Below, in pieces: positions 23,737-39,289 of a stretch of DNA of 64,000 nucleotides. The stretch comes from Streptococcus mitis subsp. hohhotensis. GTDB taxonomy: Bacteria > Bacillota > Bacilli > Lactobacillales > Streptococcaceae. Location of the stretch: the NCBI RefSeq assembly GCF_000722775.1, contig NZ_JPFZ01000006.1:62001-126000 (forward strand), given 5' to 3'. Made by a program: the position numbers and the translations under genes. The notes under the pieces are model-generated. The model was not told where the DNA came from. It was given only the letters and a program-made list of their open reading frames with translations, and ran no database searches. Each line of letters starts with the position of its first letter. The first letter of the stretch is position 1.

Positions 23737-24348
23737 ATGTCACGTTATACAGGACCATCTTGGAAGCAAGCTCGTCGCCTTGGCCTTTCACTTACAGGTA
23801 CAGGTAAAGAATTGGCACGTCGTAACTACGTACCAGGACAACACGGACCAAACAACCGTTCTAAATTGTCAGAATACGGTTTGCAATTGGCTGAAAAACA
23901 AAAACTTCGTTTCACTTACGGTGTAGGTGAAAAACAATTCCGTAACTTGTTCGTACAAGCTACAAAAATCAAAGGCGGAATCCTAGGTTTCAACTTCATG
24001 CTTCTTTTGGAACGTCGTTTGGATAACGTTGTTTACCGTCTTGGTCTTGCGACTACTCGTCGTCAAGCTCGTCAATTCGTAAACCACGGTCACATCCTTG
24101 TTGACGGAAAACGCGTTGATATCCCATCATACCGCGTAACTCCAGGTCAAGTGATCTCAGTTCGTGAAAAATCATTGAAAGTTCCAGCTATCCTTGAAGC
24201 AGTAGAAGCTACTCTTGGACGTCCAGCATTCGTATCATTCGACGCTGAAAAATTGGAAGGTTCATTGACTCGCTTGCCAGAACGCGACGAAATCAACTCA
24301 GAAATCAACGAAGCACTTGTCGTTGAATTCTACAACAAAATGCTTTAA
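23737..24348 (+). CDS. rpsD: 30S ribosomal protein S4
   Basis: 203-residue primary 16S rRNA-binding protein. It has the conserved N-terminal [19 protein letters not shown] and an S4 RNA-binding domain around [11 protein letters not shown] and [24 protein letters not shown] precedes the ATG. Codon use is highly biased, as expected for a ribosomal gene. The last codons (FYNKML and stop) contain the attachment core of integrative element 1, so the present 3' end was probably brought in by the element and restores the protein. Confidence 0.98.
24327..24342 (+). repeat. attL core of element 1 (inside rpsD)
   Basis: ATTCTACAACAAAATG, 16 bp, repeated exactly at 35682-35697. Marks the left boundary of the element in the 3' end of rpsD. 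Confidence 0.9.
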
Positions 24349-24367
24349 TTTTAAGAAATATCTTACA

Positions 24368-24393
24368 GAAAGCCTACAACAGTGGGCTTTTTG
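24368..24393 (+). terminator. rpsD terminator
   Basis: AAAGCCTAC / AGTGGGCTTT stem and T run 20 bp after the rpsD stop. It lies on the element side of the attachment core, so it arrived with element 1. Confidence 0.75.
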
Positions 24394-24420
24394 CTTTGTC
24401 TTAAAACGTTGATTTCTGGG

Positions 24421-24442
24421 TTTGTCCCCCTTTTTGTCCCCC
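24421..24442 (-). repeat. Integrase arm-type repeats, left end of element 1
   Basis: TTTGTCCCCC occurs twice with a 12-bp period (24421 and 24433) between the attachment core and the integrase stop. A degenerate pair in the same orientation and with the same period lies at the right end (35559 and 35571). Confidence 0.7.
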
Positions 24443-24443
24443 T

Positions 24444-25606
24444 TTACAAAGAACTTACAGCTTTCTCATAAAATGAGACGGCTGTTTTTGCTTTTTCTTT
24501 GGAGAGATGACTGTAAGTGTCCATAGTCATAGCTAGTGTAGAATGACCTAGACGGTGTTGTAATTCTTTATATGGTATTCCAGAGTTTAGCAAAAGACTA
24601 GCGTGTGTGTGTCTAAAACCGTGGAATCCAATATTAGGTACACCAGCATGTTTGAAACGTGTGTTTAAACGAGTTGATAGTGTTTTATTGTTTGGGTATT
24701 TATGAATAAAATCTGAGAAGACAACAGTTTCAGTCCGACCAAGTTTCCAAGCTTCTTGCCTTTGTCTTTTTTGATACACTTTTAAGACCTCTATAGTTTG
24801 TGGGTCAATATCAATTGTGCGATAACTTGCCTCAGACTTTGGGCTGTTAATCTCACCTAAATGATTTAGTGTCTTTGTAATATTCACAGTTGCATTATTT
24901 AGGTCAATATCTGACCAGTGTAGAGCTAAGGCTTCGTTAATACGGCAACCAGTAGCAAGAAGAAACTTGTACAAAGTAATTTCATAGATATTTCTATATA
25001 TTGCTAAGTTAGCCTCTTCTAAATAGCTGAGAAATTGCTTTAACTCTAAGTTATTAAAGTGTTTTACTTTGTTTCTACCCTTTTTTATTTTACGAGGAAG
25101 AATAACTTCACGAGCTGGATTCATATCAATAATCTGCATTGTCACAGCATATTGTAGTATACGTTTATTTAGCGCGTGAATTTTATCATAGTGTAGAAAT
25201 GCGCCTTCTTCTCGTTTGTTAGCACGTAGAGCTAGTTGATTAACAATGCGTTGGATAGTTGGAGTAGTTAACTTATCTAACCTATAAGAACCAAATAAAG
25301 GAATCACATGGTTAGATAGTAGTCGCTTTACTGAATCTTGCGTATTTGGTTTTACTGTGTGTTGATAGCTTTCCCACCATAGTTGAGCTACTTCTTCATA
25401 ACTTGTTAGTGGGATTATTTCTTTTTTAGTGAAGCCATTATTTTGGAATTCAGCCTTAGCTAATTGAGCTTTTTTCTTCAATTCAGTTTTAGTTCTAGCT
25501 GTCAGATTAGACTTTATTTTTTTCCTGTGAGTTTATCTACTCCTAAGTATACTTTGGCACGATATACAGTGCTACCATTTTGTTTTTTTATTTCTGCTAT
25601 TTTCAT
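24444..25606 (-). CDS. int: Tyrosine integrase of element 1, split by a frameshift
   Basis: Site-specific recombinase next to attL. The catalytic part (24444-25481, 345 residues) has the Arg region GCRINEALALHW, HGFRHTHAS, RLGHSTLAMTMDTYSHL with the nucleophilic Tyr, plus a SAM-like core-binding domain. The start of the protein lies in another frame: ATG at 25604-25606 with an AGAAAGG site encodes about 30 residues of an arm-binding domain (MKIAEIKKQNGSTVYRAKVY...) ending at TAA in 25514-25516. One-base slippage on the A7 run just before that stop gives ...LTGKK-IKSNLTARTK... in one continuous protein. It is therefore either frameshift-regulated or recently inactivated. Confidence 0.85.
25514..25523 (-). 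promoter_or_regulatory. Slippery heptamer A AAA AAA followed by TAA in int
   Basis: On the minus strand the upstream frame reads GGA AAA AAA TAA. A -1 slip continues as AAA AAA ATA AAG, entering the frame of the catalytic part. This is a classic -1 frameshift heptamer, with SD-like AGGAG about 17 nt upstream. A plain one-base deletion in an A8 run would look the same. Confidence 0.55.
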
Positions 25607-25662
25607 TTTTTAACCTTTCTAACATCAGTAGGCAAGCTGTAAAAGGTTATGAAAAATAGATA

Positions 25663-26202
25663 TTATGATTTGTGTCTAGAACGAATACCTTCAATTAGTA
25701 TCTGTAGAGCAGTTAAGTCCTCAGTTGTGAGTGCTTGACCATCAATAGTTATTTTTACATTCTTCCTAAAGATATAATCAAGATTAATTTTGATATTTTC
25801 CCCATTGATAATATCTTGGCTAATATCTTTGTATGTTTTTAACTTTGAGAATATGGATTCGCCATTTCTTAACTCAATTAAATCTTTTAAAAGTTGCTTC
25901 TCTTTATCGTTATGAACAGAATCCATGTGGATATTTTTGATTATATCATCAATATAAGAGTTAGCCAATTGTTGATATTTAATTTTGTGCTCATCAAACT
26001 CTAATCCACCTTGTTCGCATTTTTCTTTTATAGAGAGTGAAGCAATGCTTTCAGTAATTTCAGAGAGTTTAGTTAAACTGGGAATCTTTTTCTCATTTTC
26101 AATTTGTGAGATATAAGACTGTGATACTTTTAGTTCTTCAGCAAGGCTCTTAGTAGTTACGTTACCTTCTGTACGGTATTTTTTAAGATATGCTCCTATC
26201 AT
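25663..26202 (-). CDS. XRE-family repressor of element 1
   Basis: 179-residue DNA-binding protein. The N-terminal helix-turn-helix (residues 5-60: KSLAEELKVSQSYISQIENEKKIPS) is of the Cro/CI type; a long charged helical C-terminal part, about 65-179, has no recognisable protease motif. It is divergent from the xis-small ORF-helicase genes, as in phage satellites and integrative elements where such a protein keeps the element quiescent. Its stop is 56 bp upstream of the integrase start, so int may be co-transcribed. Confidence 0.8.
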   Translation of the reverse strand: MIGAYLKKYRTEGNVTTKSLAEELKVSQSYISQIENEKKIPSLTKLSEITESIASLSIKEKCEQGGLEFDEHKIKYQQLANSYIDDIIKNIHMDSVHNDKEKQLLKDLIELRNGESIFSKLKTYKDISQDIINGENIKINLDYIFRKNVKITIDGQALTTEDLTALQILIEGIRSRHKS

Positions 26203-26287
26203 TTTTAACCTCCGTTTAATAACTTTAGTAATATTTTAGCAAAAAACTCTTGACATGTAAATAGAAAACTGATAAAATTCCAAATAT

Positions 26288-26310
26288 AACCCAAGTCAAT
26301 TAACTTGGTT
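26288..26310 (+). promoter_or_regulatory. Inverted repeat in the repressor/xis intergenic region
   Basis: AACCCAAGT and ACTTGGTT face each other around 6 bp. It lies between the XRE repressor and the divergent xis gene, so it is a candidate operator; it could also be a 5'-UTR hairpin. Confidence 0.4.
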
Positions 26311-26376
26311 AATAGGCGAGCTGTACTAGTTATGAGAGGATAGTTGTGCACAAAATGGAAAAGAAAGGGGGTGTCT

Positions 26377-26673
26377 ATGTTTAGTACACCACAAGGGATA
26401 TTATCTCAAGAAGCAGAACTAGCATTGTTGGGAAGGATTGAGCATTTAATAAATGATTATCTATCACATGCAATGCTTTCACCTCACAGTGACTCGTTTG
26501 GCTTGATACAACAGAAAGAGTTAATCAAAGAACTAGGTATTAGTTTAGTAACTCTGCATGAATGGGAGCGTTTGGGGTTAACTCGATACTGTCCACCAAT
26601 AGAAGGAACTCGCAAAGTTTTCTATAAGAAATCAGATGTTATGAAGTTTCTTTCAATTACTAGTAAGGAGTGA
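26377..26673 (+). CDS. Excisionase-like MerR/HTH_17 protein of element 1
   Basis: 98-residue small DNA-binding protein. The C-terminal winged helix is of the AlpA/Xis type (QKELIKELGISLVTLHEWERLGL, then PPIEGTRKVFYKKSDVMKFL). I chose the ATG at 26377, with GGGGGTG upstream, over an earlier GTG. The C-terminal motif is clearly shared with the protein at 38238-38486 in element 2 (PPIEGTRTVFY). Likely role: directing excision or activating the following genes. Confidence 0.75.
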   Translation: MFSTPQGILSQEAELALLGRIEHLINDYLSHAMLSPHSDSFGLIQQKELIKELGISLVTLHEWERLGLTRYCPPIEGTRKVFYKKSDVMKFLSITSKE

Positions 26674-26678
26674 ATACA

Positions 26679-26822
26679 TTGTATGAAAAGAAAATAAACA
26701 CAATTGAAAAGTTCTATGATTTCTTGAAATACATAGGTACTTGCAACCATGTTGAATCACAGATTCAATTGCTATCAATTACGCTATATAGTGTAATGCT
26801 TATCCAAGAAAGGATTGTCTAA
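26679..26822 (+). CDS. Small ORF, 47 residues, coupled to the helicase
   Basis: A TTG start at 26679 follows AAGGAG by 8 bp; the reading frame runs 47 codons to TAA at 26820-26822, overlapping the helicase ATG as TAATG. The peptide (starting YEKKINTIEKFYDFLKY and ending SVMLIQERIV) looks like two helices. A start at the GTG (26670) would overlap the ribosome site. Spacing, overlap and coupling argue that it is translated. Function unknown; it may be a helicase loader or an accessory of replication. Confidence 0.6.
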   Translation: MYEKKINTIEKFYDFLKYIGTCNHVESQIQLLSITLYSVMLIQERIV

Positions 26823-28363
26823 TGACATTAATTACCATAAAACCAAAACATTCTGTTCTAGAAGCAGATATTAAATTTGAAACTTACCCTGAGAATGCTA
26901 TTCAAGATTTTGATAACGCTACTCCAATAACTGAATATAAGGAAGAATGGCGAATATATAAAAATGAGGTAATTGATTCTACCCCTCACATAGAGCCTTC
27001 AGAAAAAGAGAAGATGAAAAAGAGAAAAGCTCCTTTTTATATCATGGCAGATTTTTTAATGGCTCATCTCATTGTGGTTAGTATAGCTGAAATAGAGGAT
27101 ACTGGTGAAGGTAACTTATTTGTGTATAATCCCAAAGAGGGGATTTATCAACCTGCTTGGCATATTGTTAATAAATTAGCAAGAAGGTTAGAACCTTCTT
27201 TTAGGAGTAATGATATATCAGAGATTTTTTCTGTACTAAGTTGTATCTGTAAAAATGTAAGTATATATCAAGGCTCACGTTACATAGCGTTAGGGAATTG
27301 TATTTATGATACTTATTATGGGGACGGAATGAAGTACAGTCCTTCAATTGTGTTTACACATAAGGTACAAGTAAATTATAATTCAGAAGCAACTTCTCCA
27401 GTATTGGGCGATTGGTCTATTGATTCTTGGTTAACTGAACTGTTTAATAATGATGCTGAACTAATTCACTTAGCATGGCAAACAATTTTGGCAGTGATAC
27501 GTGGTTATGCTGATGAGAGAATTATTTGGCTGATTGGAAAAGGAGGAACAGGTAAGGGTAGTTTCCAAGAGTTGTTAATTAACTTAGTAGGTAGGATTAA
27601 TACAGCATCCATGAAACTAATTGAATTAGAGGGCAAAAATCGTTTTGCCACTTCACAGTTAATAGGTAAACATCTAGTTATTGGAGATGATAATCCTATT
27701 GATAAGGTGGTAACAGACCCTTCTACTATGTTTTCTCTAGTTACTCATGATATTGTCACAATCGAAAAGAAAGGCAAACAGGCCTATTCTGCTCGACTTA
27801 CTCCTGTGATTGTTCAATCATCTAATCGATTGATTAAGATTCAAGGAGACAAAGAAGCTATAGCAAGAAGAACTTTCATACTTCCCTTCGTTTCTGAATT
27901 TAACAAAGATGGTTACAAGAGAGAAATAAAGCAGGTTTATCTAAAACGTCAGGATGTATTAGAATATGTATTGAAGAATGCATTAGAATATGATATCAGT
28001 GATGGATTCAAGGATATCAGTCACCACCCTGCTATCAAGGAAATTCATGGGAAGTCTATGACAAGTGTTGAACAGTTTTCATCTTATCTGTTTAGTCGTG
28101 TGAAATCTACTTTCTTGCCGAATTCATTTATGCTATGGGCATATGAACAATTCTGTGAAGGAAATGGTTTAAAACGAGAAACTAAGGAAGCCTTTCACAA
28201 AGAATTAAAAGATGCACTTCCATCAGACTGGGTATTTAAGCCAACATTATCTACTTGTAAAGATTTTGATGAGGGTGATTCTGTTTATTTTATTCATTCT
28301 GAGTCTTTTAATTTGGATTCTACAAAGAGATATAAAGGGTATGTAATGAAGTCATGCTCTTGA
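26822..28363 (+). CDS. D5/SF3-type helicase (P4-like replication protein)
   Basis: 513-residue replication protein. A D5_N-like region (about 60-220) is followed by an SF3 AAA+ helicase with Walker A GKGGTGKGS (about 242), Walker B-like HLVIGDDNP, and a motif C region VIVQSSNRLIKIQGD with ARRTFILPF as arginine finger. An archaeo-eukaryotic primase domain was not recognised at the N terminus, so the protein is probably helicase only. Such proteins drive autonomous replication of phage satellites and integrative elements after excision. The region just downstream has origin-like repeats. Confidence 0.85.
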   Translation: MTLITIKPKHSVLEADIKFETYPENAIQDFDNATPITEYKEEWRIYKNEVIDSTPHIEPSEKEKMKKRKAPFYIMADFLMAHLIVVSIAEIEDTGEGNLFVYNPKEGIYQPAWHIVNKLARRLEPSFRSNDISEIFSVLSCICKNVSIYQGSRYIALGNCIYDTYYGDGMKYSPSIVFTHKVQVNYNSEATSPVLGDWSIDSWLTELFNNDAELIHLAWQTILAVIRGYADERIIWLIGKGGTGKGSFQELLINLVGRINTASMKLIELEGKNRFATSQLIGKHLVIGDDNPIDKVVTDPSTMFSLVTHDIVTIEKKGKQAYSARLTPVIVQSSNRLIKIQGDKEAIARRTFILPFVSEFNKDGYKREIKQVYLKRQDVLEYVLKNALEYDISDGFKDISHHPAIKEIHGKSMTSVEQFSSYLFSRVKSTFLPNSFMLWAYEQFCEGNGLKRETKEAFHKELKDALPSDWVFKPTLSTCKDFDEGDSVYFIHSESFNLDSTKRYKGYVMKSCS

Positions 28364-28692
28364 TACACTTGAAACAGTAAATTTCATTTCTATTTTCAAT
28401 TTTATTTGTTTTATTTATTCTAAGAAGTTGGAAATTAGTGTATCAAGTGTATCATTCTGGAGATATACAAAGTGTGAACGACTAGCCCGCCACGAGCGAA
28501 GGCAAAGGAGTGAAACACTTTGTTAAGTACCAAACACGCCTAATTTATTCCATGGTCTAATTGACAGCAAGAAACAAGGCACTCTCGTACAAATGAACTG
28601 TCCATCCGAAAAACTAAAGCCTTTCGTCTGAGACGTTCTTAGCGTACTTTGTGCCTACTTACTGTCAATTTGCTTTCACGGCATAAAGGCGT
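28361..28692 (+). other. Origin-like region: iteron-like repeats and nested hairpins
   Basis: Non-coding 330 bp after the helicase gene. TGATACACTT (28361) opposes two tandem AGTGTATCA copies (28437 and 28446). Then comes a 9-bp hairpin ACAAAGTGT / ACACTTTGT (28467-28523). Then three nested pairings: ACGCCT/AGGCGT (28536, 28687), AATTGACAG/CTGTCAATT (28559, 28662), AGGCAC/GTGCCT (28577, 28651). The inner loop carries TAGCGT (28640), the CS-6 hexamer of ssoA-type single-strand origins. It could be a replication origin, an sso or a structured RNA. Nothing is seen in 28700-28820. Confidence 0.55.
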
Positions 28693-28826
28693 ATGCTTGT
28701 GAGATAAAATAGAGAATAAAACTAGCTATTTAATAAGGATTTAGATTATAGAATTTAACATTTTTATAGTGTTGTCTTGATTCAGCTATCAGTTTTTTCT
28801 GTACAATTGTATCAATTTATCTTTTT

Positions 28827-29018
28827 GTGTTTGTGGTTAGTAATGCGCGTGATAATGGGATTTCTAAGGGGCGATTAAAAAATAGAATAGTAATGGATGT
28901 ATGTGAATTTTGCTATTCACCGATTAACTCTCTATATCAAAAATGTGTTAGTAATGTGGAATTGTCTGAAAGAGATTCATGTGATGTAACGGATATACAA
29001 AATCCCTGCAATGAGTAA
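28827..29018 (+). CDS. Possible small Cys-containing ORF
   Basis: 63 codons from a GTG, with five cysteines including CEFC. The stop lies in the loop of the following terminator and there is no good ribosome site. It resembles no family I know. It may be spurious, or a remnant of a longer gene. Confidence 0.25.
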   Translation: MFVVSNARDNGISKGRLKNRIVMDVCEFCYSPINSLYQKCVSNVELSERDSCDVTDIQNPCNE

Positions 29019-29031
29019 TTGCAGGGATTTT
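28999..29031. terminator. Strong bidirectional terminator
   Basis: Fourteen-base perfect stem AAAATCCCTGCAAT / ATTGCAGGGATTTT with a 5-nt loop. T runs on both sides allow it to end the rightward origin transcripts and the leftward five-gene cargo operon. Confidence 0.85.
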
Positions 29032-29072
29032 CAGGTAACTAGGAAAACTTTGTAAGTATAGGGAATATTGTT

Positions 29073-30164
29073 TTAGTCTATTTTGTAGTAGACAGCTTTT
29101 TCATCAGATGGATGTGTTTGAGTAATGATAATTCTAGTTTTACTTTTATCAGTTGGGTCTTCGATTGATACCATTTGGTTATTCTCAAATCGTTTCATAG
29201 GTATACTTGTTCCAGGGGGATATATTCCCATTGCAGCTCCTATAGGTCCTGAGCTGATACTAAAACCTATGTGTCCATCGCTTCCCATGCCTGACTGAGC
29301 TATCTGTCCTCCTTTTGTTAACCCATTCTTATTAAACACTATTTCATATCCTAGTTCATTCCTCCAAGTACCAGCTATACTAGAGTAGTCTCCATGTAGA
29401 ATAGCCTGTGTATCAATTTCTTGTGTTGTATTTTCTGTGTGCTTTTCTTCTGTGGGAGTCGTGATAAGTGTGGCATCAGTAGCAACCCAGAATTGAAATT
29501 TTTCAGAGTCTTCCATGATTCTGACTGTGAAAGTAACGGTTGCTCCTTCTTGCCATCCTTCAATCATAGATTTCTTAATTTGTATTTGTACACCAGTTAT
29601 AGGAGCATTACTAGCTTTTACCCAAATAGTATGGTATGTTTCTAGAGCTTTAAAATGTCCTACGTATGCTTCCCAAAATTTTTGGCGTGTTAGTTCTGCT
29701 GTGAAGCGGTATAGTTGACCAGTTTTTAACCTACCATCATTTTCCATGTCTCGAAGCTCTTCGGCTGTCGTGTCTATTATACTATCTTCAGTTGAGCTAG
29801 AGCTTGTGGTAGATGTGCTGGATGATGCAGAGAAACTAGAAGTAGTAGATGAGATTTGTTGTGAAGAGTGACTATCTACTGTTTCTATATTTTCATTTAG
29901 ATGTCTAAAGAATAAAAAAGTAGCTCCTATAATGGTAAGAAGTAGAAGTGTAATTGAGGTTATAAGAATCCAAAATTTGTTGCTCTGTGGTAGAGGACAA
30001 ACTACTACGTGATTCTGATTTTGGTAAACTTCAACAATATCGTTTACTTTAGGATGAAAAGTTAACTCATTGATAGGAACATTTAGAGTCTCATTTGTGT
30101 GGAGTCGAATGATAATATGTGTTTCTGAAACGTGAATAATTTGGTTATGTTTTTTATTTTTCAT
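29073..30164 (-). CDS. Cargo operon gene 5: membrane-anchored DUF6287-type protein
   Basis: 363 residues. Residues 1-62 are a small cytoplasmic beta-rich domain (HPKVNDIVEVYQ); about 64-88 a transmembrane helix; about 95-130 a Ser/Thr linker; about 135-235 an extracytoplasmic OB-like domain; about 245-363 a C-terminal domain with GDYSSIAGTWRN, which I recognise as DUF6287-like from streptococcal surface lipoproteins. Same overall design as the gene upstream (30171-30908), 6 bp away. Function unknown. It is the last gene before the strong terminator. Confidence 0.75.
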   Translation of the reverse strand: MKNKKHNQIIHVSETHIIIRLHTNETLNVPINELTFHPKVNDIVEVYQNQNHVVVCPLPQSNKFWILITSITLLLLTIIGATFLFFRHLNENIETVDSHSSQQISSTTSSFSASSSTSTTSSSSTEDSIIDTTAEELRDMENDGRLKTGQLYRFTAELTRQKFWEAYVGHFKALETYHTIWVKASNAPITGVQIQIKKSMIEGWQEGATVTFTVRIMEDSEKFQFWVATDATLITTPTEEKHTENTTQEIDTQAILHGDYSSIAGTWRNELGYEIVFNKNGLTKGGQIAQSGMGSDGHIGFSISSGPIGAAMGIYPPGTSIPMKRFENNQMVSIEDPTDKSKTRIIITQTHPSDEKAVYYKID

Positions 30165-30170
30165 GTAGTA

Positions 30171-30908
30171 TTAGTTCTCGTACATATAGGCAACCATGAG
30201 AGGTAGTGTTTTTGTGGATTTAAAGACCGTTTCATAACTTTGTCTTCCTTTTACTAGTCCGTACAATGTTATATGGTCATCTTCGGCTATAACTCTATTG
30301 TTGTATTCAGAAGGAATAGAAACCAAAATAATTTTATCATAGTCATCATTTATGGCTACACGCAGTGTGTAGGCTTTCCCATCTTCCATAGCTTGTAAAA
30401 CTTTACCATATACTCTTACTTTAGTATCTACGGCTATTTCATCATGATTCCACTTGTTATAGTCTACTTCACCATAATTTGCTTTATCATTATCTACAGT
30501 AATCTTAGGTTTTGATGGTACTGAGGATGAGGAACTGGAACTACTTTCCTTTAAGGAAGATGAAGAGGTAGAGCTACTTTTTTTGGATGATGAAATTTGT
30601 TTTGATGTTGAACTTGAAGTTGTTTGATTGTTTGAAATTTGTTTTTTAGTATTTATAAAACTTATAACAATAATTACAAACAGTAATAGTAGAGTGACTA
30701 TAATTCCTATTTTTTTAGATTTGTTCTTTTTCTCTATGTTGTTCTTGTTGATGTCGACTTTTATGACAATACCTTCATAAACTTCTACATAATCCCCTAT
30801 ACTAGGTTCAAAGTCACAAGATTCAATAGCAATTTCCTTTAAACTTCCATCTTCATAACCTATATAAGCAGTATCTTCAGTTATTTTAATAATTTTCCCT
30901 ATGTTCAT
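30171..30908 (-). CDS. Cargo operon gene 4: membrane protein with cytoplasmic beta-domain and extracellular OB-like domain
   Basis: 245 residues. Cytoplasmic beta-domain 1-56 (CDFEPSIGDYVEVYEG), transmembrane helix about 66-87, Ser-rich linker about 92-130 and an extracytoplasmic domain about 135-245 rich in beta-strands (TKVRVYGKVLQAM, HITLYGLVKG), OB-fold-like. The N-terminal domain is a relative of the one in gene 5. A decayed fragment of a paralogue lies at 33535-33639. Function not known to me. Confidence 0.75.
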   Translation of the reverse strand: MNIGKIIKITEDTAYIGYEDGSLKEIAIESCDFEPSIGDYVEVYEGIVIKVDINKNNIEKKNKSKKIGIIVTLLLLFVIIVISFINTKKQISNNQTTSSSTSKQISSSKKSSSTSSSSLKESSSSSSSSVPSKPKITVDNDKANYGEVDYNKWNHDEIAVDTKVRVYGKVLQAMEDGKAYTLRVAINDDYDKIILVSIPSEYNNRVIAEDDHITLYGLVKGRQSYETVFKSTKTLPLMVAYMYEN

Positions 30909-30918
30909 TAGTACTCTC

Positions 30919-31722
30919 CTATTTTAATATTCCAGAAAACTTAACTTCATCAGGTGCCATTACATAACGATTCACAGCGACTTCTTCCCCACTGAGAGTG
31001 TAATAGAATCTAGGGCTATTTACTCCGTGGGATTTGGCAATTTTATATAAAGATTTGTTTAATGCACTGATAATTGCTCTAAGTTCTTTGTTTGAATACG
31101 AAGCATTATTTTCTGTGAGAATGATTCTGATGCCAAGTGTTACAGATGTTTTTTCCATTTCAAGCATATGTGCTCCTGATTGTGTATTTACTTTATCTAC
31201 ACCTCCTTGAATTGCATTATAGAAAGCATCTAAATCTACTTTTCTGTTTTCTTCATTAGACTTTTTTTCAGATTCTTTAGATTTTTTCTCTGCTTCCTCT
31301 TTCAATTTTTTCTGTTTTTCCCGTTCTTCCCGTTCTTCTCGTTCTTTCCGCTCTTTTTCTTCTTTAATCTTTTCGATTTGTTTATTAAGTTTTAATTCCA
31401 CTTCGTTTACACGGGAGGACAAACTACTAATTTTGTACTCGTGGTCGTTTGGATATCTATCTTCTAGGTATTTAATTTCCTTTTTAACAGATGACAATTC
31501 ACTATCATCAGAAACAAGCTTCAAAGCTTCCTCTAACGTTATATTTTGTTTTATATTTGTTGTGTTATTTTCTAGTGCTTCAACTAGCTTAGTAACACGT
31601 TCCGTATCTTTAACATATTGTTGATTACCATAGCTTATTGCAATATAAGCAAATAATCCAAATAATAAAGTAAATATCACTAGAAAACCTACAATATATT
31701 TATAAATTTTTTCTTGGTTCAT
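30919..31722 (-). CDS. Cargo operon gene 3: membrane-anchored coiled-coil protein
   Basis: 267 residues. Transmembrane helix about 8-28, then a long Lys/Glu-rich coiled coil (about 30-160) and a folded C-terminal domain (about 165-267, with VDLDAFYNAIQGGVDKVN and FYYTLSGEEVAVNRYVM). The N-terminal in-out topology puts the coiled coil and C-terminal domain outside the cell. No family recognised. It starts 3 bp after gene 2 and ends 10 bp before gene 4. Confidence 0.75.
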   Translation of the reverse strand: MNQEKIYKYIVGFLVIFTLLFGLFAYIAISYGNQQYVKDTERVTKLVEALENNTTNIKQNITLEEALKLVSDDSELSSVKKEIKYLEDRYPNDHEYKISSLSSRVNEVELKLNKQIEKIKEEKERKEREEREEREKQKKLKEEAEKKSKESEKKSNEENRKVDLDAFYNAIQGGVDKVNTQSGAHMLEMEKTSVTLGIRIILTENNASYSNKELRAIISALNKSLYKIAKSHGVNSPRFYYTLSGEEVAVNRYVMAPDEVKFSGILK

Positions 31723-31725
31723 TAT

Positions 31726-32166
31726 TTATTCCTTTCTTATAAATGACTCAATCACTTCAACACTAGCTTGACTTGCTTTCGGTAATATGTCATATACTGT
31801 ACCATTTGTGAAGTAAGTGAGATTGGGGATTGTTTTGAATCCTACATTTGTTTTAAAGTTATTCCAACTTGTCTTATCTATATGCTCACTATCTAAGTAA
31901 TACACAGTTGTCTCAGTTTTATCTACTGCTTTTGCTAGCTTTGGAGCAAATTCTTGGCAGTATGGACAACTCTCTCTCCCTGTGTATAGGTAAAAGCTTT
32001 CTTTATGTTGTATTTTCTGTTCCACAGCCTCTAAACTTATCTTTTGGAGTCTCTTTATAGCTATCTGGTATTCTGTTTGTGGTAGAGTAGTTAAGTATGC
32101 TGTGAATGTGACGATTATAATAAGTAGTAGTGACAGTAGAATAAGAACTTTTTTACTATTCATCAC
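31726..32166 (-). CDS. Cargo operon gene 2: membrane-anchored thioredoxin-like protein
   Basis: 146 residues: transmembrane helix 5-25, then a thioredoxin fold with CPYC (context YTGRESCPYCQEF) and the cis-Pro segment FKTIPNLTYF. It resembles the bacteriocin-accessory/PedC-type thioredoxins of Gram-positives, whose role is disulfide formation or reduction outside the cell. In the same operon the Excalibur protein has a Cys pair (NCKEAR and GYGCDE) that could be its substrate. The start overlaps the end of gene 1 by 11 bp. Confidence 0.82.
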   Translation of the reverse strand: MMNSKKVLILLSLLLIIIVTFTAYLTTLPQTEYQIAIKRLQKISLEAVEQKIQHKESFYLYTGRESCPYCQEFAPKLAKAVDKTETTVYYLDSEHIDKTSWNNFKTNVGFKTIPNLTYFTNGTVYDILPKASQASVEVIESFIRKE

Positions 32167-32995
32167 ATCCGTATCCGTCTTTGTCTCTATCTAGCCATGG
32201 ACCATATTGTGGGTCACTAGCAGGTATGTTTACACGTCCTGCTTTTCGTGCTTCCTTACAGTTTTTGAACGGTCTTAAATTTGATTGTGGAGCAGGTGTA
32301 GACGATTGTGTAGGAGTGGTTGTGGTGTGAGATGAAGCTTGTTCTTGCTCTTTTGCTCGTGAAGATGCTTTCCTTTCCTCCTCTTTTGATTTGGAGGCTT
32401 CAATACTTGCTTTTTCCTCTTCTTGTGCTTTTTCTGTTTTTCTCACTTCACTGATTACTAACGAACCTTTATCGATTGAATCATATTTTTCTAAAGATAC
32501 TGTATTTCCTGTATAGACCATAAGTTCATTCATTTTCACAGCTAGTGATTCAGGTGTACGGATAAGAAGCTTCTTACCTGTTATGTTGTACTCACGGTAT
32601 TCATCTTTTTCTTCAATCCCAATTACCTCAGCTTCAACTTCGTAGAGTTTATCTGTGTTAGAGAGTTTGTGTGCTACCTCTCTCAGTGCTTTGGCTCGCA
32701 GTATGATTTTAATTTGTGGTGTATTTAGATAAGCATCTACAGCTATATGTCCAGTTGGAGACCATTTCTCTATTTTAGAGCTAGTTTCACTACTAGATGA
32801 TGAAGTAGAGGAAGATGAACTAGACTGTTTAACTTGTGAAGACTGTTTGACAGAATCACTAGCCTTGGTTTGAGCTTGTGAGTGTTTAGTGCTACCGCTA
32901 GTTAGTAGTGTGAAGAACAAAATGAGGATAAGCAATAGTACAATACCACCTATAATCTTTTGTTCTTTGCTTAATTCCTTAAGCTTTTTAAGCAT
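32156..32995 (-). CDS. Cargo operon gene 1: membrane-anchored Excalibur-domain protein
   Basis: 279 residues. Transmembrane helix about 12-32, Ser-rich linker 37-70, an extracytoplasmic central domain (about 72-185), a charged coiled region with Ser/Thr/Pro (about 190-240), and a C-terminal Excalibur domain: FKNCKEARKAG then a DRDKDGYGCDE calcium-binding loop with two Cys likely in a disulfide. GGAGG precedes the ATG. It is the first gene of the leftward operon, divergent from an XRE gene 184 bp away. Function unknown. Confidence 0.8.
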   Translation of the reverse strand: MLKKLKELSKEQKIIGGIVLLLILILFFTLLTSGSTKHSQAQTKASDSVKQSSQVKQSSSSSSTSSSSSETSSKIEKWSPTGHIAVDAYLNTPQIKIILRAKALREVAHKLSNTDKLYEVEAEVIGIEEKDEYREYNITGKKLLIRTPESLAVKMNELMVYTGNTVSLEKYDSIDKGSLVISEVRKTEKAQEEEKASIEASKSKEEERKASSRAKEQEQASSHTTTTPTQSSTPAPQSNLRPFKNCKEARKAGRVNIPASDPQYGPWLDRDKDGYGCDE

Positions 32996-32999
32996 ATAT

Positions 33000-33179
33000 A
33001 ACCTCCAAATGTTTAACTTTATTTAATGAAATAAAATAAATATTTCCTAATAGTTATAATTATATCACACAAACTTTAACAATAGAATATGTTTTTATTA
33101 AATATTAAACTATAGAGAATGTAAACCTGATTGTTTAATCTATAAGATAGATAGTAGATTTAACATAGAGGGTGAAGGA
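33000..33179. promoter_or_regulatory. Divergent promoter region of the cargo operon and its XRE gene
   Basis: AT-rich 180 bp. On the minus strand a TATAAT box lies about 65 bp upstream of the operon; on the plus strand TATAAG lies about 40 bp before the XRE gene. The layout suggests control of the operon by the XRE protein. No clear palindrome was found. Confidence 0.45.
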
Positions 33180-33506
33180 ATGGATGATATATTAGAAAAT
33201 ATAAGTAATCAGATACGAGACTTACGAGCTTCAAAGAAGATTACACAGCAAGAATTAGCAGAAAGAACAAATCTAAGTGTTCCTTATATCAGTCAGATAG
33301 AAAATAATCATAGAAATATCTCTTTGGAAACTTTTGTGAAGATTGTTGATGCTTTAGAAGTTCCGTTGAGTGATTTTTTCTTACCTTATTCTGTTCCACA
33401 AGATACAGAGATGATGGAACTGTTATTGAAGATTCAGAAACACCCACAGCATAAGATGATTGTTCATAAGGTGATGGAAATACTTGAATTAAGCCAAGAT
33501 AGTTAG
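33180..33506 (+). CDS. XRE-family regulator divergent from the cargo operon
   Basis: 108 residues with an N-terminal helix-turn-helix (about 9-64: KKITQQELAERTNLSVPYISQIENNHR) of the SinR/Cro type and a helical C-terminal tail that may dimerise. GAGGG lies 7 bp before the ATG. Its position opposite the five-gene operon makes it the likely local regulator. It differs from the element repressor at 25663. Confidence 0.85.
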   Translation: MDDILENISNQIRDLRASKKITQQELAERTNLSVPYISQIENNHRNISLETFVKIVDALEVPLSDFFLPYSVPQDTEMMELLLKIQKHPQHKMIVHKVMEILELSQDS

Positions 33507-33534
33507 TGATAAATAAAAAGCACTAAAGAGTAAT

Positions 33535-33639
33535 TTATACTAAATCTATCCAACCATATATAGTTGTTTTAGTATCTATTATTATTTCATCATGCTTAAA
33601 ATTGTTATAGTCTCTCTCGAAGTGATTTTTAATAGTAAT
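33535..33639 (-). pseudogene. Fragment of a paralogue of cargo gene 4
   Basis: On the minus strand 33639-33535 reads ITIKNHFERDYNNFKHDEII and then DTKTTIYGWIDLV, stop. Cargo gene 4 reads ITVDNDKANYGEVDYNKWNHDEIAV, then DTKVRVYG, in the same place. The rest of the gene is gone. The remaining 33640-33825 shows no gene. Confidence 0.75.
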
Positions 33640-33825
33640 CTGTAGGTCGGGTGATTAGAAATTATCTGTACTGTTTGTATATTGTGAGGATTAGAGGTGA
33701 CATTATTCAGATAAGGAATGAGAATTATTTTTCTTAATTGAAGAGGTCGATTAAAAAACAAAAAGAAAAAGAAAGCACTGAATCTGAATATTCAGCGCTT
33801 ATCTATTTTCTTAAAAAACGTGTTA

Positions 33826-35226
33826 CTAAATCCATTCCCCATTAGCATTTACAGTATAACCATCAACTGTAGTGCTTACTGCTAATGCTCCTGAGCTATA
33901 AGAGTAGTACCATTTAGTGCTGACTTGATACCAACCAGTTTTCATAGAACCTGATTCAGTGAGGTAATACCAAGTACCACTTTGACTAAGCCAGCCAGTC
34001 TGCATAGAGCCTGAGCTGTTTAGGTAGTACCATGTACCAGATTGATTGAGCCAACCTGTTTGCATAGCTCCTGAACCGTTGAGATAATACCAAGTTCCAT
34101 TAACTTTTTGCCAACCTGTTTTCATAGAGCCTGAATCAGTCAAATAGTACCAAGAGCCTCCTTGATTTAACCAACCAGTCTTCATTTCTCCATCTTGTGC
34201 TAGGTAATACCATGCACCGTTTACTTGAACCCAGCCAGATTGCTTGTTCTTTGATTGGTCATAGTAGAACCATTTACCATTTTCTTGCACCCAACCTTGT
34301 TTCTGTGTTGTAGCTTCTTCTTTTTTAGTAGTACTTTCGTCTACTTTCTTTTGCTTCAGTTCATTCTCCTGTTTTTTTAATGGTTCTTCAGCTTTAACTG
34401 TAGTATCACTCTTAGGTTTCTTTATTCCCTCTTTAATTTTTTCAAGAGAGTCATATCCTCTACGCTTATTTATTTCTGCAACATAGTCAGCATAGGGTGT
34501 ATCTCCACCCTCAAAAGGGTTCCCAGTAGTTTGGCTAATCGTTTTAGATTCATAGGGGTCTTCGACTTTTCCTGTTTCAGGATGATACCAAGCAAGTACG
34601 CCTGCTTCCCCCCAGTAGAATATACCCCAATTATTTCTGAGAACATCTCCCACATATTTTAAATCTTCACTGTTTGCATATTTTTTATCTGCAATTATTC
34701 TTTCTATATACTCAGCTTCTTGTCTTTTCTTTTCTTCTGACCTGTTTCTTCTAGTTTCTTTAAGTTTTTCTATGTATTCTTTATGTCTCTTTGCTTGTTC
34801 CTCTTTGTCTTTATCAAACTCTTTTTTGATTTTATCAAAACTATCATACCCTCTAAGGCGGTTTGTTTCAGCAATATAGACACTCGAGACTAAACCAACA
34901 TCATCAAAAGGGTAACCATAATGTATTTTCTCATATTCGGTTACATTTAAAGGGTCTAATATAATTTCATTTTCAGGCTGATACCAAGCAAGTTCTCCAT
35001 TTTTACCCCAGTAAAATACGCCACTATTTCGAGCAATTTTTTGATTTTGCATTTTAAAATCTTCATCCCAAATAGCTTTCGTCTTCTTTGGAATATCATT
35101 TATTATTTTACTAATTCTTTCAGTCTCGCTTTTATTAATTACATGGTCTGCTGAGACAGACTTAACACCAGCAAAAACTATAAACAATGCTATAAGCGCT
35201 GTAATAATTGTGTTTTTCTTTTTCAC
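33826..35226 (-). CDS. Choline-binding protein with duplicated novel N-terminal domain
   Basis: 466-residue secreted protein from a GTG start with AAAGGAG upstream. Signal peptide 1-27 (KSVSAD). Two related domains follow, about 60-135 and 190-265, sharing (V/I)FYWG, LAWY.PE, DP, a G.PF..G core and a (R)RGYDS(F/L)(D/E)KIK end, separated by a charged helix (about 135-185). After a Lys/Glu-rich linker, about eight choline-binding repeats (GW..NG.WYYL) finish in GALAVS and GEWI. It would sit on phosphocholine of teichoic acid. I do not recognise the repeated domain. It is cargo of element 1. Confidence 0.85.
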   Translation of the reverse strand: MKKKNTIITALIALFIVFAGVKSVSADHVINKSETERISKIINDIPKKTKAIWDEDFKMQNQKIARNSGVFYWGKNGELAWYQPENEIILDPLNVTEYEKIHYGYPFDDVGLVSSVYIAETNRLRGYDSFDKIKKEFDKDKEEQAKRHKEYIEKLKETRRNRSEEKKRQEAEYIERIIADKKYANSEDLKYVGDVLRNNWGIFYWGEAGVLAWYHPETGKVEDPYESKTISQTTGNPFEGGDTPYADYVAEINKRRGYDSLEKIKEGIKKPKSDTTVKAEEPLKKQENELKQKKVDESTTKKEEATTQKQGWVQENGKWFYYDQSKNKQSGWVQVNGAWYYLAQDGEMKTGWLNQGGSWYYLTDSGSMKTGWQKVNGTWYYLNGSGAMQTGWLNQSGTWYYLNSSGSMQTGWLSQSGTWYYLTESGSMKTGWYQVSTKWYYSYSSGALAVSTTVDGYTVNANGEWI

Positions 35227-35558
35227 TTTAAATACTCCTTTGTTTTATAATTCATTTCAAGCAATAAGAAGTCATTTAAACTTTATTACTTAAATATAAA
35301 TCGTAAATTATTATACCATAAATCAAGTAATATCACTATATTTTCATAAAACACCTCCTGTTTTATATTTATGTTTAAAACATTGTTAAACACTATCCTA
35401 ATTATATCACAGTTACATATATATTAGTTAATGTTTTTAATAATTTTTTAACTCTAGCAAATGTAAAATATACACCTTAATCTACAAGATGAATGGGGTA
35501 AAATAAAAAGCACCTAAACGGTACTTCTTACTTGCCTACTGAACTCATCACCATGAAA
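35227..35558. other. Intergenic: CBP promoter, otherwise empty
   Basis: AT-rich 330 bp upstream of the choline-binding protein gene. On the minus strand an extended -10 (TGGTATAAT, core 35310-35315) lies about 85 bp before the GTG. No gene recognised. Confidence 0.5.
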
Positions 35559-35580
35559 TTTGTACTCCTTTTTGTCCACC
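35559..35580 (-). repeat. Integrase arm-type repeats, right end of element 1
   Basis: TTTGTACTCC (35559) and TTTGTCCACC (35571), 12 bp apart, in the same orientation as the left pair and about 100 bp from the right attachment core. More degenerate than the left copies. Confidence 0.6.
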
Positions 35581-35681
35581 TCGGAGTAAAGTTTAATCTA
35601 TTTTATTTAATATGTAAATTCTAAAAATACTACAGAATCAACATTTATAAAGCATACCAAAGTGTAATTTATACTAAATCT

Positions 35682-35702
35682 ATTCTACAACAAAATGTTG
35701 TA
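35682..35702 (+). repeat. attR of element 1 with displaced rpsD tail
   Basis: ATTCTACAACAAAATG (35682-35697) repeats attL exactly and continues TTGTAA. In frame it reads F-Y-N-K-M-L-stop, the same ending as RpsD but with a different Leu codon. It is therefore the original chromosomal rpsD 3' end pushed aside by integration. A GC-containing hairpin (AGCACT/AGTGCT with T run, about 35745-35778) follows and may be the old rpsD terminator. Confidence 0.9.
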
Positions 35703-35816
35703 ATATTTTATTGAATAAGATAGGCTTTAGAGCCTTGATATTGAGCACTTTGGGGCGCTTTCCCTTAGTGCTTTTTTTGTTTTTACAATAGCTTTTAAGC
35801 ATACAGCTATAAGTAT

Positions 35817-36882: not shown

Positions 36883-38148
36883 TTATTGCGTTAGCTCAGC
36901 AATCTTTTCAAGATAAATCCCCACAGCTTCTAACTTTCGTTGTGGTGCTAATTCAGCGTAAGTATCCATTGTAGTTGAAATGGATTTATGTCCCATTCTG
37001 ACTTGGAGTTCTTTCCAATTTGTTCCAGCATTAAGTAGCATTGAAGCATGAGTATGTCGGAATAAATGGAAACCATAGTTTGGTAACCCAAGACCTACTA
37101 ACCTTTTCTTAAGAGTTGTTCTCTCGTTTCTGTCACACATATAGTTCCCATAGATTGTAGGGAAAATAAGTTTTGTTCTATGTCTGTTGTGCAATTCAAG
37201 ATACTTGTTCATTTCGTGGTGGAAATCTATGAGTTTTTCTATTATGGGGGGAGGGACAGGGACAGAGCGATTTCCTGCATCAGTTTTTGGTGTAGCTTTA
37301 CAGATAACTTCCCCTTTTGTCCCATCTTTTTTATTTGCGGTTTTCCACATCAATGTTTTACTGACATTAATAGAAGAATTTTCAAAATCTAGGTCATCAA
37401 TCGTCAATGCAAGTAGTTCATTTATTCGCAAAGCAGAGGCTAATAAAGTATTACAAATTAACTTAAATCGTCGATTGGCTCTATTGTTATCTAAACTTTC
37501 AAGATAATTAAGCCATATTACAAGACTATCATCATGTAATACCATGATGCGTTGCTTATTTGATTTTGGCTTAGGTGGTATCTTAACAGAGCTAACAGGA
37601 TTAGTGATTAGTCCATAGTTTGTAATTCCATAGTCAAAAATATCTTTCAACTTATGGATAACAGCACCAAAATCTTTAGCACTACCTTTATCAGCACGCT
37701 TTATACCAGATTCAATGGACTCTTTTGATTTCTTTGCCAAACCATTTAACCAAAGCTGAATATCCGCAGATTCAATTTTATCTGGTTTGTAATCTCCAAA
37801 TTTAGGGATAATATAATTATCAAGATAACCTCTTACTCTGTTCAGAGTATTATGCGAGTTGACCCAGGTCTTATATGATTTAAACCATTCTTCAGCTAAA
37901 TCTTCCAGTGTATCAATGACGATAACTTTTTCTCGTGTTGAGCCATTTTTTTCAAATTCTAGTCGTGCTTGAATGATTGCTCTATCTAACTGTTTTAGTG
38001 TCTTGGCTGTAATGGTAGTAGTGACTTGCTTACCAGTTTTGATATCTTTTCCCAGAAATGTCCCCTTCAAAGTGTATGAGATGGACTTATCTTTTTTGAT
38101 TTTTTTAATGACTTTTTTGCCATTATGAATAATTGTTTCAGTTTCCAT
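36883..38148 (-). CDS. int: Tyrosine integrase of element 2
   Basis: 421-residue recombinase. An AP2-like N-terminal arm-binding domain (about 10-70), SAM-like core-binding domain (about 75-165) and catalytic domain with Arg in ASALRINELLAL, HLFRHTHASMLL, RMGHKSISTTMDTYAEL (nucleophile Tyr). Full length for Tn916/phage-type integrases. AAAGG precedes the ATG. It lies at the left end beside the att and arm repeats, so it catalyses integration into rpmG and, with the Xis upstream, excision. Confidence 0.93.
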   Translation of the reverse strand: METETIIHNGKKVIKKIKKDKSISYTLKGTFLGKDIKTGKQVTTTITAKTLKQLDRAIIQARLEFEKNGSTREKVIVIDTLEDLAEEWFKSYKTWVNSHNTLNRVRGYLDNYIIPKFGDYKPDKIESADIQLWLNGLAKKSKESIESGIKRADKGSAKDFGAVIHKLKDIFDYGITNYGLITNPVSSVKIPPKPKSNKQRIMVLHDDSLVIWLNYLESLDNNRANRRFKLICNTLLASALRINELLALTIDDLDFENSSINVSKTLMWKTANKKDGTKGEVICKATPKTDAGNRSVPVPPPIIEKLIDFHHEMNKYLELHNRHRTKLIFPTIYGNYMCDRNERTTLKKRLVGLGLPNYGFHLFRHTHASMLLNAGTNWKELQVRMGHKSISTTMDTYAELAPQRKLEAVGIYLEKIAELTQ

Positions 38149-38178
38149 ATTTGCCTTTCTTCATGGATATTGAAGTAG

Positions 38179-38223
38179 GCTAAAATAGTTACCACTCTTT
38201 CTTTTAGATAAAACTATTTTAGC
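38179..38223. terminator. Inverted repeat between xis and int of element 2
   Basis: GCTAAAATAGTT / AACTATTTTAGC, 12-bp perfect arms with a 21-nt loop, inside the 89-bp gap. It may be an attenuating hairpin that lowers int expression or a protein-binding site. Confidence 0.5.
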
Positions 38224-38237
38224 ACAAATTTTCAGAA

Positions 38238-39084: not shown

Positions 39085-39112
39085 AGGCAGTTACCTCATT
39101 TCTTTTGGGTTC

Positions 39113-39149
39113 TATTACTAAGGAGAAATGTCAGGTCGTATGCAAAGTT
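39113..39149 (-). promoter_or_regulatory. Two-part motif upstream of rep (copy 1)
   Basis: On the plus strand TATTACTAAGGAGAA, 14 variable bases, GCAAAGTT. The same parts with the same 14-base spacing occur at 41413-41449. Read in the direction of rep it is AACTTTGC, then TTCTCCTTAGTAATA. Candidate element-specific promoter. Confidence 0.6.
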
Positions 39150-39187
39150 TTTTTGAAAAAATTGAATTTTTTGTGATTATTGATTAT

Positions 39188-39223: not shown

Positions 39224-39244
39224 TGATAGAAAAGAATATAAAAA

Positions 39245-39283: not shown

Positions 39284-39289
39284 AAGGGA

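What the first reader, a model, noticed from the sequence alone, without database searches (positions are those of the whole stretch)
29073..33506. Undescribed five-gene extracytoplasmic system as cargo of an integrative element
Seen: five leftward genes with gaps of -11 to +10 bp, one strong terminator and a divergent XRE gene. All five products have one N-terminal transmembrane helix and an outward domain: Excalibur/Ca2+ loop, CPYC thioredoxin, coiled coil, OB-like, and OB-like plus DUF6287-like. Three have Ser-rich linkers. Known: membrane thioredoxins act on secreted Cys proteins; Excalibur loops bind Ca2+. Inference: an envelope complex with redox maintenance, perhaps for competition, phage exclusion or mating control. 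No part matches a system I can name.
Basis: partly seen in the sequence, partly recalled or inferred. Interest (0 to 1): 0.85.

Follow-up and report, generated by a model that had tools for sequence, protein, structure and literature searches.

The report
Satellite-phage envelope operon, likely phage exclusion
A small phage parasite sitting in a Streptococcus chromosome carries five membrane-anchored surface proteins built like proteins that phages use to stop other phages from injecting DNA, together with a probable dedicated enzyme for the disulfide bond of one of them; the function is inferred, not shown.

Summary
The five-gene block is real as described. It is cargo of an 11.4-kb phage-satellite-type element at the 3' end of rpsD: two GenBank satellite phages carry it, a 16-bp att repeat bounds it, and relatives show the empty site. 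It is not unique: a core of divergent XRE regulator, Excalibur protein (P5) and CPYC thioredoxin (P4) occurs in 12 of 284 Streptococcus genomes, in one of them (G053) at 41-45% identity within its own integrase-primase element. The other three genes are swapped between elements and exchange outer domains. Outer domains of P1, P2, P3 and P5 have relatives in temperate-phage lysogeny modules, often beside the integrase, where known superinfection-exclusion genes lie; the layout (anchor, Ser-rich spacer, outer domain) is that of the exclusion protein Ltp. P4 is a Bta/PedC-type thioredoxin; 31 of 60 such streptococcal loci have an Excalibur gene directly upstream, and P4 and P5 hold the operon's only extracytoplasmic cysteines. 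Best reading: a multi-protein, domain-shuffling entry-exclusion module whose Excalibur disulfide is made by P4. The exclusion step rests on position and layout; no exclusion or defence family matches by sequence. New variant of a known kind.

The parts
24327..35697 (.). Phage-satellite-type element with its two 16-bp att copies, integrated at the 3' end of rpsD
   Evidence: 16-bp exact repeat; empty site in G103, G225, G023; Javan305 and Javan323 carry it
24327..24342 (+). attL word within the 3' end of rpsD
24444..25481 (-). tyrosine integrase
   Evidence: PF00589 E 5.3e-27; 97-98% to Javan305/323
25663..26202 (-). HTH repressor-like
   Evidence: PF01381 E 2.3e-10
26344..26673 (+). MerR-like small protein
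   Evidence: PF13411 E 0.0011, below cut-off
26822..28363 (+). D5/DUF5906 primase-helicase
   Evidence: PF19263 E 5.6e-17, PF03288 E 1.4e-8
29001..29034 (-). hairpin downstream of P1
   Evidence: z -5.35
29073..30164 (-). P1: cytoplasmic segment, TM, Ser-rich linker, OB-like domain (not modelled), DUF6287 tip (variable between elements)
   Evidence: middle part matches ul36 ORF355
30171..30908 (-). P2: cytoplasmic segment, TM, Ser-rich linker, OB-like outer domain with relatives in phage lysogeny modules
30919..31722 (-). P3: TM, coiled coil, C-terminal domain shared with ul36 ORF355
31726..32166 (-). P4: TM-anchored CPYC thioredoxin, Bta/PedC type (start probably at the second codon)
32156..32995 (-). 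P5: TM, Ser-rich linker, middle domain, Excalibur domain (Cys246, Cys277)
33132..33165 (.). inverted repeat, candidate operator of the XRE protein
   Evidence: similar in nine relatives
33180..33506 (+). XRE-type regulator, divergent from P5
   Evidence: PF01381 E 1.1e-17; next to P5 in 15 of 15 block loci, partial in two at contig ends
33826..35226 (-). choline-binding protein in the variable slot of the element; not part of the five-gene block
   Evidence: PF01473 E 3.8e-38; N-part found in 1 of 14 other block loci, L036
35682..35697 (+). attR word

Best explanation
The block is a superinfection-exclusion-type envelope module of a phage satellite. Shown by sequence: the element is a satellite-type island at rpsD; its five proteins are membrane-anchored with outward domains (by hydropathy); XRE-P5-P4 is the fixed core and P1-P3 are exchangeable; parts of P1, P2, P3 and P5 have relatives in phage lysogeny modules. 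Inferred: in the integrated state the proteins act on the outer face of the membrane, held off it by Ser-rich spacers; their variable domains engage the entry apparatus of an incoming phage (for example its tape measure protein, as Ltp does) and block DNA injection, which protects the host of the satellite. P4 forms or repairs the Cys246-Cys277 bond of P5's Excalibur domain, so that its Ca2+ loop is stable outside the cell. The XRE protein controls the operon from the shared intergenic region. I put about 0.75 on the P4-P5 step and 0.45 on exclusion.
For: Element: att repeat, empty site, satellite-phage records. Core: P5-middle-domain search hits 12 of 284 genomes, the same 11 with close P4 plus G053; XRE-P5-P4 in 15 of 15 loci compared. 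Phage relatives: P2-type gene beside the integrase in 5 of 5 opened Streptococcus phage records and next to an integrase-sized ORF in 7 of 7 IMG/VR phage loci, 6 of 7 matching integrases (sets overlap); ul36 ORF355, between int and cI, combines P1-like and P3-like parts; anchored Excalibur genes with an integrase downstream in 7 of 10 other IMG/VR loci. Layout like Ltp (PMC3952083, passages); CbpL joins Excalibur to an Ltp domain (PMC5137146, passages). Tip and domain swaps. P4-P5: 31 of 60 pairs, cysteine inventory, Excalibur disulfide known in CbpL.
Against: No match of P1-P5 to an exclusion or defence family: no PF07553, only weak PADLOC matches; the two PHROG 'superinfection exclusion' matches, to P2 (E 1.7e-4) and P5 (E 0.005), cover mainly TM and linker. 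P2's outer domain weakly resembles part of LiaX, an envelope-stress protein (E 3.5e-6, 26 bits against a cut-off of 350). Position is no proof: three genes in that place in phage Dub35A gave no resistance (PMC7693887, passages). OB relatives are not always beside an integrase: not in satellites Javan619 and Javan398 (linear records), and in only 2 of 6 cellular loci outside known block carriers. The acidity seen in Ltp holds for phage OB domains (net -12 to -16 in 5 of 5 computed) but only weakly for P1/P2 (-5) and not for P3C (+1) or P5-middle (0). 29 of 60 P4-type loci have no Excalibur gene upstream.
Confidence: 0.45

Rival explanations
1. A surface complex for host or community interaction (adhesion, growth in serum, biofilm), i.e. 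lysogenic conversion by the satellite; the choline-binding protein in the same element would be more surface cargo.
For: Deletion of a pneumococcal satellite prophage reduced growth in serum and virulence (PMC6813308, passages); CbpL, an Excalibur protein, is tied to pneumococcal lung infection (PMC5137146, passages); a choline-binding gene lies in the element.
Against: The satellite effect was tied partly to vapE and not to such a block. The outer domains have relatives in lysogeny modules of phages from several genera, whose hosts include non-pathogens, where an adhesion role would not explain the place.
Confidence: 0.2
2. The proteins act on DNA entry of other kinds (transformation or conjugation) or on other satellites and the helper phage, for example as an entry barrier that keeps out competing elements in general.
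For: P2's outer domain models as an SSB-like OB fold; phage Excalibur proteins carry a nuclease-like stretch by eye, and a PHROG nuclease family matches P5's C-terminus.
Against: OB folds bind many ligands; the domain is acidic, which speaks against DNA binding. No part matches a mating or competence system in the libraries searched.
Confidence: 0.15
3. A redox module: P4 serves oxidative-stress resistance or bacteriocin maturation, and the other proteins are its clients or unrelated.
For: P4's best NCBIfam model is PedC/BrcD (E 2.1e-14) and its best solved relative is 'bacterocin transport accessory protein'. The S. mutans homologue Tlp of pneumococcal Bta affects peroxide resistance and competition (PMC7410335, passages); PedC raises pediocin potency (PMC4919988, passages).
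Against: P4 is below the PedC cut-off (53.6 against 120 bits). I recognised no bacteriocin-like gene in the element; the one Cys-rich small ORF outside the block (28827-29018) does not keep its cysteines in relatives. The recurrent genomic partner is an Excalibur gene.
Confidence: 0.1

Closest known systems
Ltp-type superinfection exclusion (lipoprotein of Streptococcus thermophilus phage TP-J34)
   Same: membrane anchor, Ser-rich spacer, outer effector domain; relatives of the outer domains lie in the lysogeny module
   Different: no Ltp domain; TM anchors instead of a lipobox; several proteins plus a thioredoxin; carried by a satellite; exclusion untested
Lactococcal Sie systems (Sie2009, SieF7/2AB)
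   Same: membrane-associated products of genes between integrase and repressor (PMC7693887, passages); ul36 has an ORF355 with P1- and P3-like parts there
   Different: no sequence link shown; TP901-1 has the PH-domain and metalloprotease genes without ORF355
Bta/PedC thioredoxins (PDB 1zma; TIGR01295)
   Same: CPYC thioredoxin, profile match E 1.2e-18 to 1zma, PedC model E 2.1e-14
   Different: below the PedC cut-off; no bacteriocin partner recognised; paired with an Excalibur gene
Excalibur-domain surface proteins (CbpL; YokF)
   Same: Cys pair and DxDxDGxxC loop
   Different: P5 has a TM anchor and its own middle domain; no choline-binding, Ltp or nuclease domain found in P5
SNIPE (membrane-bound nuclease that cuts phage DNA during injection)
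   Same: idea of defence at the membrane during DNA injection, with tape measure contact (PMC13190303, passages)
   Different: one cytoplasm-facing nuclease in E. coli; no shared domain seen

Membership tests
Phage satellite (PICI-type island) | integrase with att sites at a fixed chromosomal locus | tested here: met
Phage satellite (PICI-type island) | repressor and primase/replication module without phage structural genes | tested here: met
   repressor-like, primase-helicase found; no structural gene among the 11 element ORFs scanned with Pfam; ORFs under 100 aa were not scanned
Phage satellite (PICI-type island) | induction and packaging by a helper phage | not testable with these tools
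   needs experiment; records Javan305/323 are named satellite phages by their authors
Ltp superinfection-exclusion family | Ltp repeat domain (PF07553) | tested here: not met
   no PF07553 in P1-P5 at E up to 1
Ltp superinfection-exclusion family | lipobox anchor | tested here: not met
   hydropathy shows TM segments and P1, P2 and P5 have no cysteine in or just after them; an OB relative in phage locus L063 has a lipobox-like start by eye
Ltp superinfection-exclusion family | Ser-rich spacer before the outer domain | tested here: met
   P1, P2, P5; not P3, P4
Ltp superinfection-exclusion family | blocks phage DNA injection | not testable with these tools
   needs phage assays
PedC/BrcD bacteriocin disulfide isomerase (TIGR01295) | NCBIfam score over cut-off | tested here: not met
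   53.6 bits against 120
PedC/BrcD bacteriocin disulfide isomerase (TIGR01295) | thioredoxin fold family with CxxC | tested here: met
   CPYC; PF00085 over cut-off; 1zma match
PedC/BrcD bacteriocin disulfide isomerase (TIGR01295) | linked to a bacteriocin gene | tested here: not met
   none recognised among the element ORFs; small-ORF screen
Excalibur domain protein | PF05901 over cut-off with two Cys and DxDxDGxxC | tested here: met
   42.6 bits against 22; motif invariant in 7 aligned relatives
Excalibur domain protein | Ca2+ binding and disulfide | not testable with these tools
   shown for CbpL in PMC5137146 (passages)
Known anti-phage defence systems (PADLOC-DB 2.0.0) | convincing match to a system protein | tested here: not met
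   P1-P5: best E 2.5e-4 (18 bits, P1 N-terminal 4-105); XRE matches only HTH models

The most novel reading that the evidence does not exclude
Phage satellites of streptococci carry a multi-protein, domain-shuffling entry-blocking complex with a fixed XRE-Excalibur-thioredoxin core, in which recombination at Ser-rich linkers puts new outer domains on old anchors; and, more widely, streptococcal 'bacteriocin transport accessory' thioredoxins are in many cases dedicated oxidoreductases of Excalibur-domain surface proteins.
Probability: 0.3. Interest if true: 0.72.

Novelty: new variant of a known kind. Interest (0 to 1): 0.55.

Why it matters
If right, streptococcal phage satellites would hold an exclusion system made of several proteins instead of one, with a visible way of changing specificity (tip and linker swaps). 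It would also name a substrate class for the Bta thioredoxins, a widespread streptococcal family whose annotated role in bacteriocin transport does not fit the gene neighbours seen here. Both claims lead to simple laboratory tests.

Tried and rejected
1. The thioredoxin at the end of the S. suis satellite record Javan598 (46%) looked like an independent satellite copy. Rejected: a nearly identical protein lies directly downstream of rpsD in the chromosome of G255, and a similar one in G248 (L047, L051), so it is probably flanking DNA of that record.

2. A 63-aa ORF with five cysteines (28827-29018) as a bacteriocin-like substrate of P4. Rejected: its cysteines change in relatives.

3. A known RNA: no Rfam match at gathering threshold in 24300-35720.

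4. The structure model of P5 was too poor to use (mean pLDDT 42.7) and was not searched. P1, P3 and P4 were not modelled. The second structural aligner was busy and was not tried again.

5. Sequence profiles of the P2 OB domain and the P3 C-terminal domain found no convincing solved relative.

6. ORF355 of ul36 as the partner in a TP901-1-type exclusion pair: not supported, because TP901-1 has the PH-domain and metalloprotease genes without it.

7. A plasmid search with P4 gave 18 records, none covering 80% of it, all under 60% identity; not followed. Phage C41431 was opened and was uninformative.
Full report
What is there. The window has five leftward genes at the stated coordinates, with gaps of -11, +3, +10 and +6 in transcription order, a divergent XRE gene (33180-33506) and a strong hairpin downstream. 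I call them P5 (Excalibur, first gene), P4 (thioredoxin), P3, P2 and P1 (DUF6287, last gene). Pfam gives Excalibur, thioredoxin and DUF6287 over cut-off. Each protein has one N-terminal hydrophobic segment; P1, P2 and P5 have Ser/Thr-rich linkers. P1 and P2 begin with a homologous segment (E 2e-6), modelled in P2 as beta strands before a TM helix (65-87), a low-confidence linker and an OB-like outer domain (mean pLDDT 70.9). The best solved matches of that model are OB proteins, many of them single-stranded-DNA-binding proteins, with modest TM-scores; the best viral matches include phage lipoproteins and SSBs. The model of P5 failed (mean pLDDT 42.7).

The element. The integrase gene lies 95 bp from the end of rpsD. 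A 16-bp word at the 3' end of rpsD (24327) recurs at 35682. In genome G103 the rpsD side and the DNA right of 35682 meet, sharing 27 positions; G225 and G023 show the same junction, with right-flank similarity of only 105 bp. The element is therefore about 11.36 kb. It has an integrase, an HTH repressor-like gene, a MerR-like gene (below cut-off) and a D5/DUF5906 primase-helicase. Among the 11 element ORFs scanned with Pfam no structural gene or relaxase was seen. Two GenBank records named satellite phages, Javan305 (S. mitis 27_7) and Javan323 (S. mitis P-34), carry the same integrase (97-98%) and the block, whose genes they annotate as hypothetical proteins. Helper-dependent packaging was not testable.

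Recurrence. I compared the window with 14 other loci: Javan305, Javan323, 11 stretches from ten other genomes, and G053. They were collected by their P4 match (the genomes) or P5 match (the two phage records), so P4 and P5 are present partly by selection. An independent search with the P5 middle domain hit 12 of 284 Streptococcus genomes, namely the 11 with close P4 plus G053. Of 15 loci (window included), XRE, P5 and P4 are found in 15 (XRE partial in two at contig ends; P4 shifted in L044, intact with CPYC in the other 13 of 14), the P1 tip in 14 (two partial), a P2-type OB domain in 14 (in three of them only 33-35% identical over its full length, and in some only beyond XRE), the P1 OB domain in 12 (one partial) and the P3 C-terminal domain in 10. 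All five in the window's order: 6 of 15 (window, L032, L036, L043, L045, L046; in L046 296 nt separate P4 and P3). L040 and L046 come from one genome. Named carriers in the genome collection are S. mitis, S. pseudopneumoniae, S. shenyangsis, S. hohhotensis and two unnamed Streptococcus (13 loci).

A diverged copy. G053 holds XRE (41%), the P5 middle domain (45%), Excalibur (90%), thioredoxin (42%), a P2-type OB domain (40%) and a P3-type C-terminal domain (37%) in an element with its own integrase (43%), primase (40%) and MerR-like gene (66%). There the OB and P3-type domains sit on other anchors with weak PASTA-like repeats (below cut-off). So domains, not whole proteins, are what is kept.

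Shuffling. Against the window, in the 13 loci other than G053 the P5 middle domain is 91-100% identical and Excalibur 98-100%; the P1 OB domain is 90-100% where found; the P1 tip falls into classes (98-100, 84, 72-73, 58, 53, 39-41%); P3's N-terminal part is 70-75 or 96-100%; P2's N-terminal part is 60-100%. Other anchored proteins fill the slot after P4 and the slot beyond XRE. In G101 one intact ORF joins the P5 anchor and Ser-rich linker to the P1 OB domain. I read this as recombination at Ser-rich linkers; that is inference.

Phage relatives. P2 matches 30 phage records at E up to 0.01, 20 of them listed, through its OB domain except in the two block carriers. In the five Streptococcus phage records that I opened it is the gene beside the integrase (Javan414, 68, 271, 411, 207). 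In IMG/VR 9 loci were found, 2 of them this block; in the other 7 the next same-strand ORF is integrase-sized and 55-171 nt away, and 6 of the 7 match integrases. L062 has the integrase of Javan414, so the sets overlap. Against this: in two satellites, Javan619 and Javan398, the OB gene is far from int in the linear record. In a family-wide sample 12 of 117 genomes matched, 6 of them known block carriers; of the other six loci two are beside an integrase, one is a degraded block (G101), and three show no integrase in the stretch fetched. One of those three, G148, has a P2-like and a P1-tip protein side by side. P3's C-terminal domain matched, apart from block carriers, only ul36 and its derivatives, and P1's middle part matches another part of the same ORF355, a gene between int and cI. 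Of 12 IMG/VR loci found with the P5 profile 2 are this block; of the other 10, which match through Excalibur, 7 have an integrase 0.15-3.9 kb downstream (three of these look like one phage), and several carry, by eye, a staphylococcal-nuclease-like stretch and Ser-rich linkers. A PHROG nuclease family also matches P5's C-terminus (E 7e-12).

Thioredoxin and Excalibur. P4's profile hits PDB 1zma, 'bacterocin transport accessory protein' (E 1.2e-18), and NCBIfam's PedC/BrcD model below cut-off. CPYC stands in 9 of 11 aligned relatives and both cysteines in all 11. The operon's cysteines are P4's two, P5's Cys246 and Cys277, and one each in the N-terminal, cytoplasmic segments of P1 and P2. PMC5137146 (passages) reports that the two cysteines of Excalibur domains form a disulfide that ties the helix to the Ca2+ site. 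Of the 62 rows with E up to 4.1e-21 I examined 60 (left out: a second copy in G168, which has the pair, and the second piece of G107's gene). 31 of 60 have an Excalibur motif gene ending -13 to +24 nt from the (extrapolated) thioredoxin start on the same strand: all 12 of the mobile type, the window included, and 19 of the other 48; 29 do not. In 22 genomes, 16 chosen because they had the pair and 6 because they had not, there were 22 Excalibur matches in all, 16 of them next to the thioredoxin; with so few such genes per genome, adjacency by chance should be rare. The loci are related by descent, so these are not 31 independent events. In G062 and G214 a DUF6287 protein lies close by.

Function. 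Ltp of phage TP-J34 has a lipid anchor, a serine-rich spacer and an outer domain that blocks DNA injection through the tape measure protein, with negative charges important (PMC3952083, passages). Some lactococcal genes between integrase and repressor give exclusion, but three such genes of Dub35A did not (PMC7693887, passages). CbpL joins Excalibur to an Ltp domain (PMC5137146, passages). The phage OB domains are strongly acidic (net -12 to -16), P1 and P2 less so (-5), P3's and P5's domains not. On position, layout and shuffling I take exclusion at DNA entry as the best single explanation (0.45), with P4 maturing P5 (about 0.75). No convincing sequence match to an exclusion or defence family was found; PHROG exclusion families touch P2 and P5 only weakly, mainly in TM and linker, and a weak match of P2's outer domain to LiaX leaves an envelope-stress role open. 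The proteins fail the Ltp membership test; the claim is that they work like it.

Regulation. The XRE-P5 intergenic region is similar in nine relatives, L043 being the most different, and holds an inverted repeat (33132-33165) and, by eye, an extended -10-like sequence for P5. The consensus promoter scan was at chance.

Novelty. Full-text searches: Excalibur with superinfection exclusion gave one paper, on CbpL; three of four of bacteriocin transport accessory, Excalibur, disulfide, Streptococcus gave four, none holding both Excalibur and the accessory-protein phrase; DUF6287 gave two, of which I saw one passage, a table row. Two further searches on satellites and exclusion were seen as listings. 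Within that library I found no description of this block. The element type and the single parts are known; the combination, the shuffling and the Excalibur-Bta link appear new.

Noticed in passing
33513-33549 and 35646-35683: A 38-bp stretch beside attR has an 87% copy just after the XRE gene, so the choline-binding gene between them may belong to a second, remnant element; Javan323 likewise has an extra att word and an integrase fragment inside.
   Followed up: partly
36883-41312: A second tyrosine integrase, a plasmid-type Rep and an FtsK-like protein lie right beside the satellite: a second, different mobile element.
   Followed up: no
L047 8570-9019, L051 9411-9905: In G255 and G248 a Bta-type thioredoxin gene sits directly downstream of rpsD, at the place where the satellite integrates in the window's species. 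The satellite's P4 might derive from such a neighbour.
   Followed up: no
L040, L046 (G168): One S. pseudopneumoniae-like genome has four P5 places on four contigs, so it may carry several copies of the core, or the assembly repeats it.
   Followed up: no
28364-29072: A 709-bp stretch without a convincing gene between primase and P1, 94-96% identical in relatives where present, ends in the strong hairpin; no Rfam match.
   Followed up: partly
L147 4553-6273: Two-gene unit in G148: a P2-like OB protein and a P1-like DUF6287-tip protein, with no integrase in the 10.5 kb fetched.
   Followed up: no
L151 2898-3488: Natural fusion in G101 of the P5 anchor and Ser-rich linker with the P1 OB domain.
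   Followed up: partly
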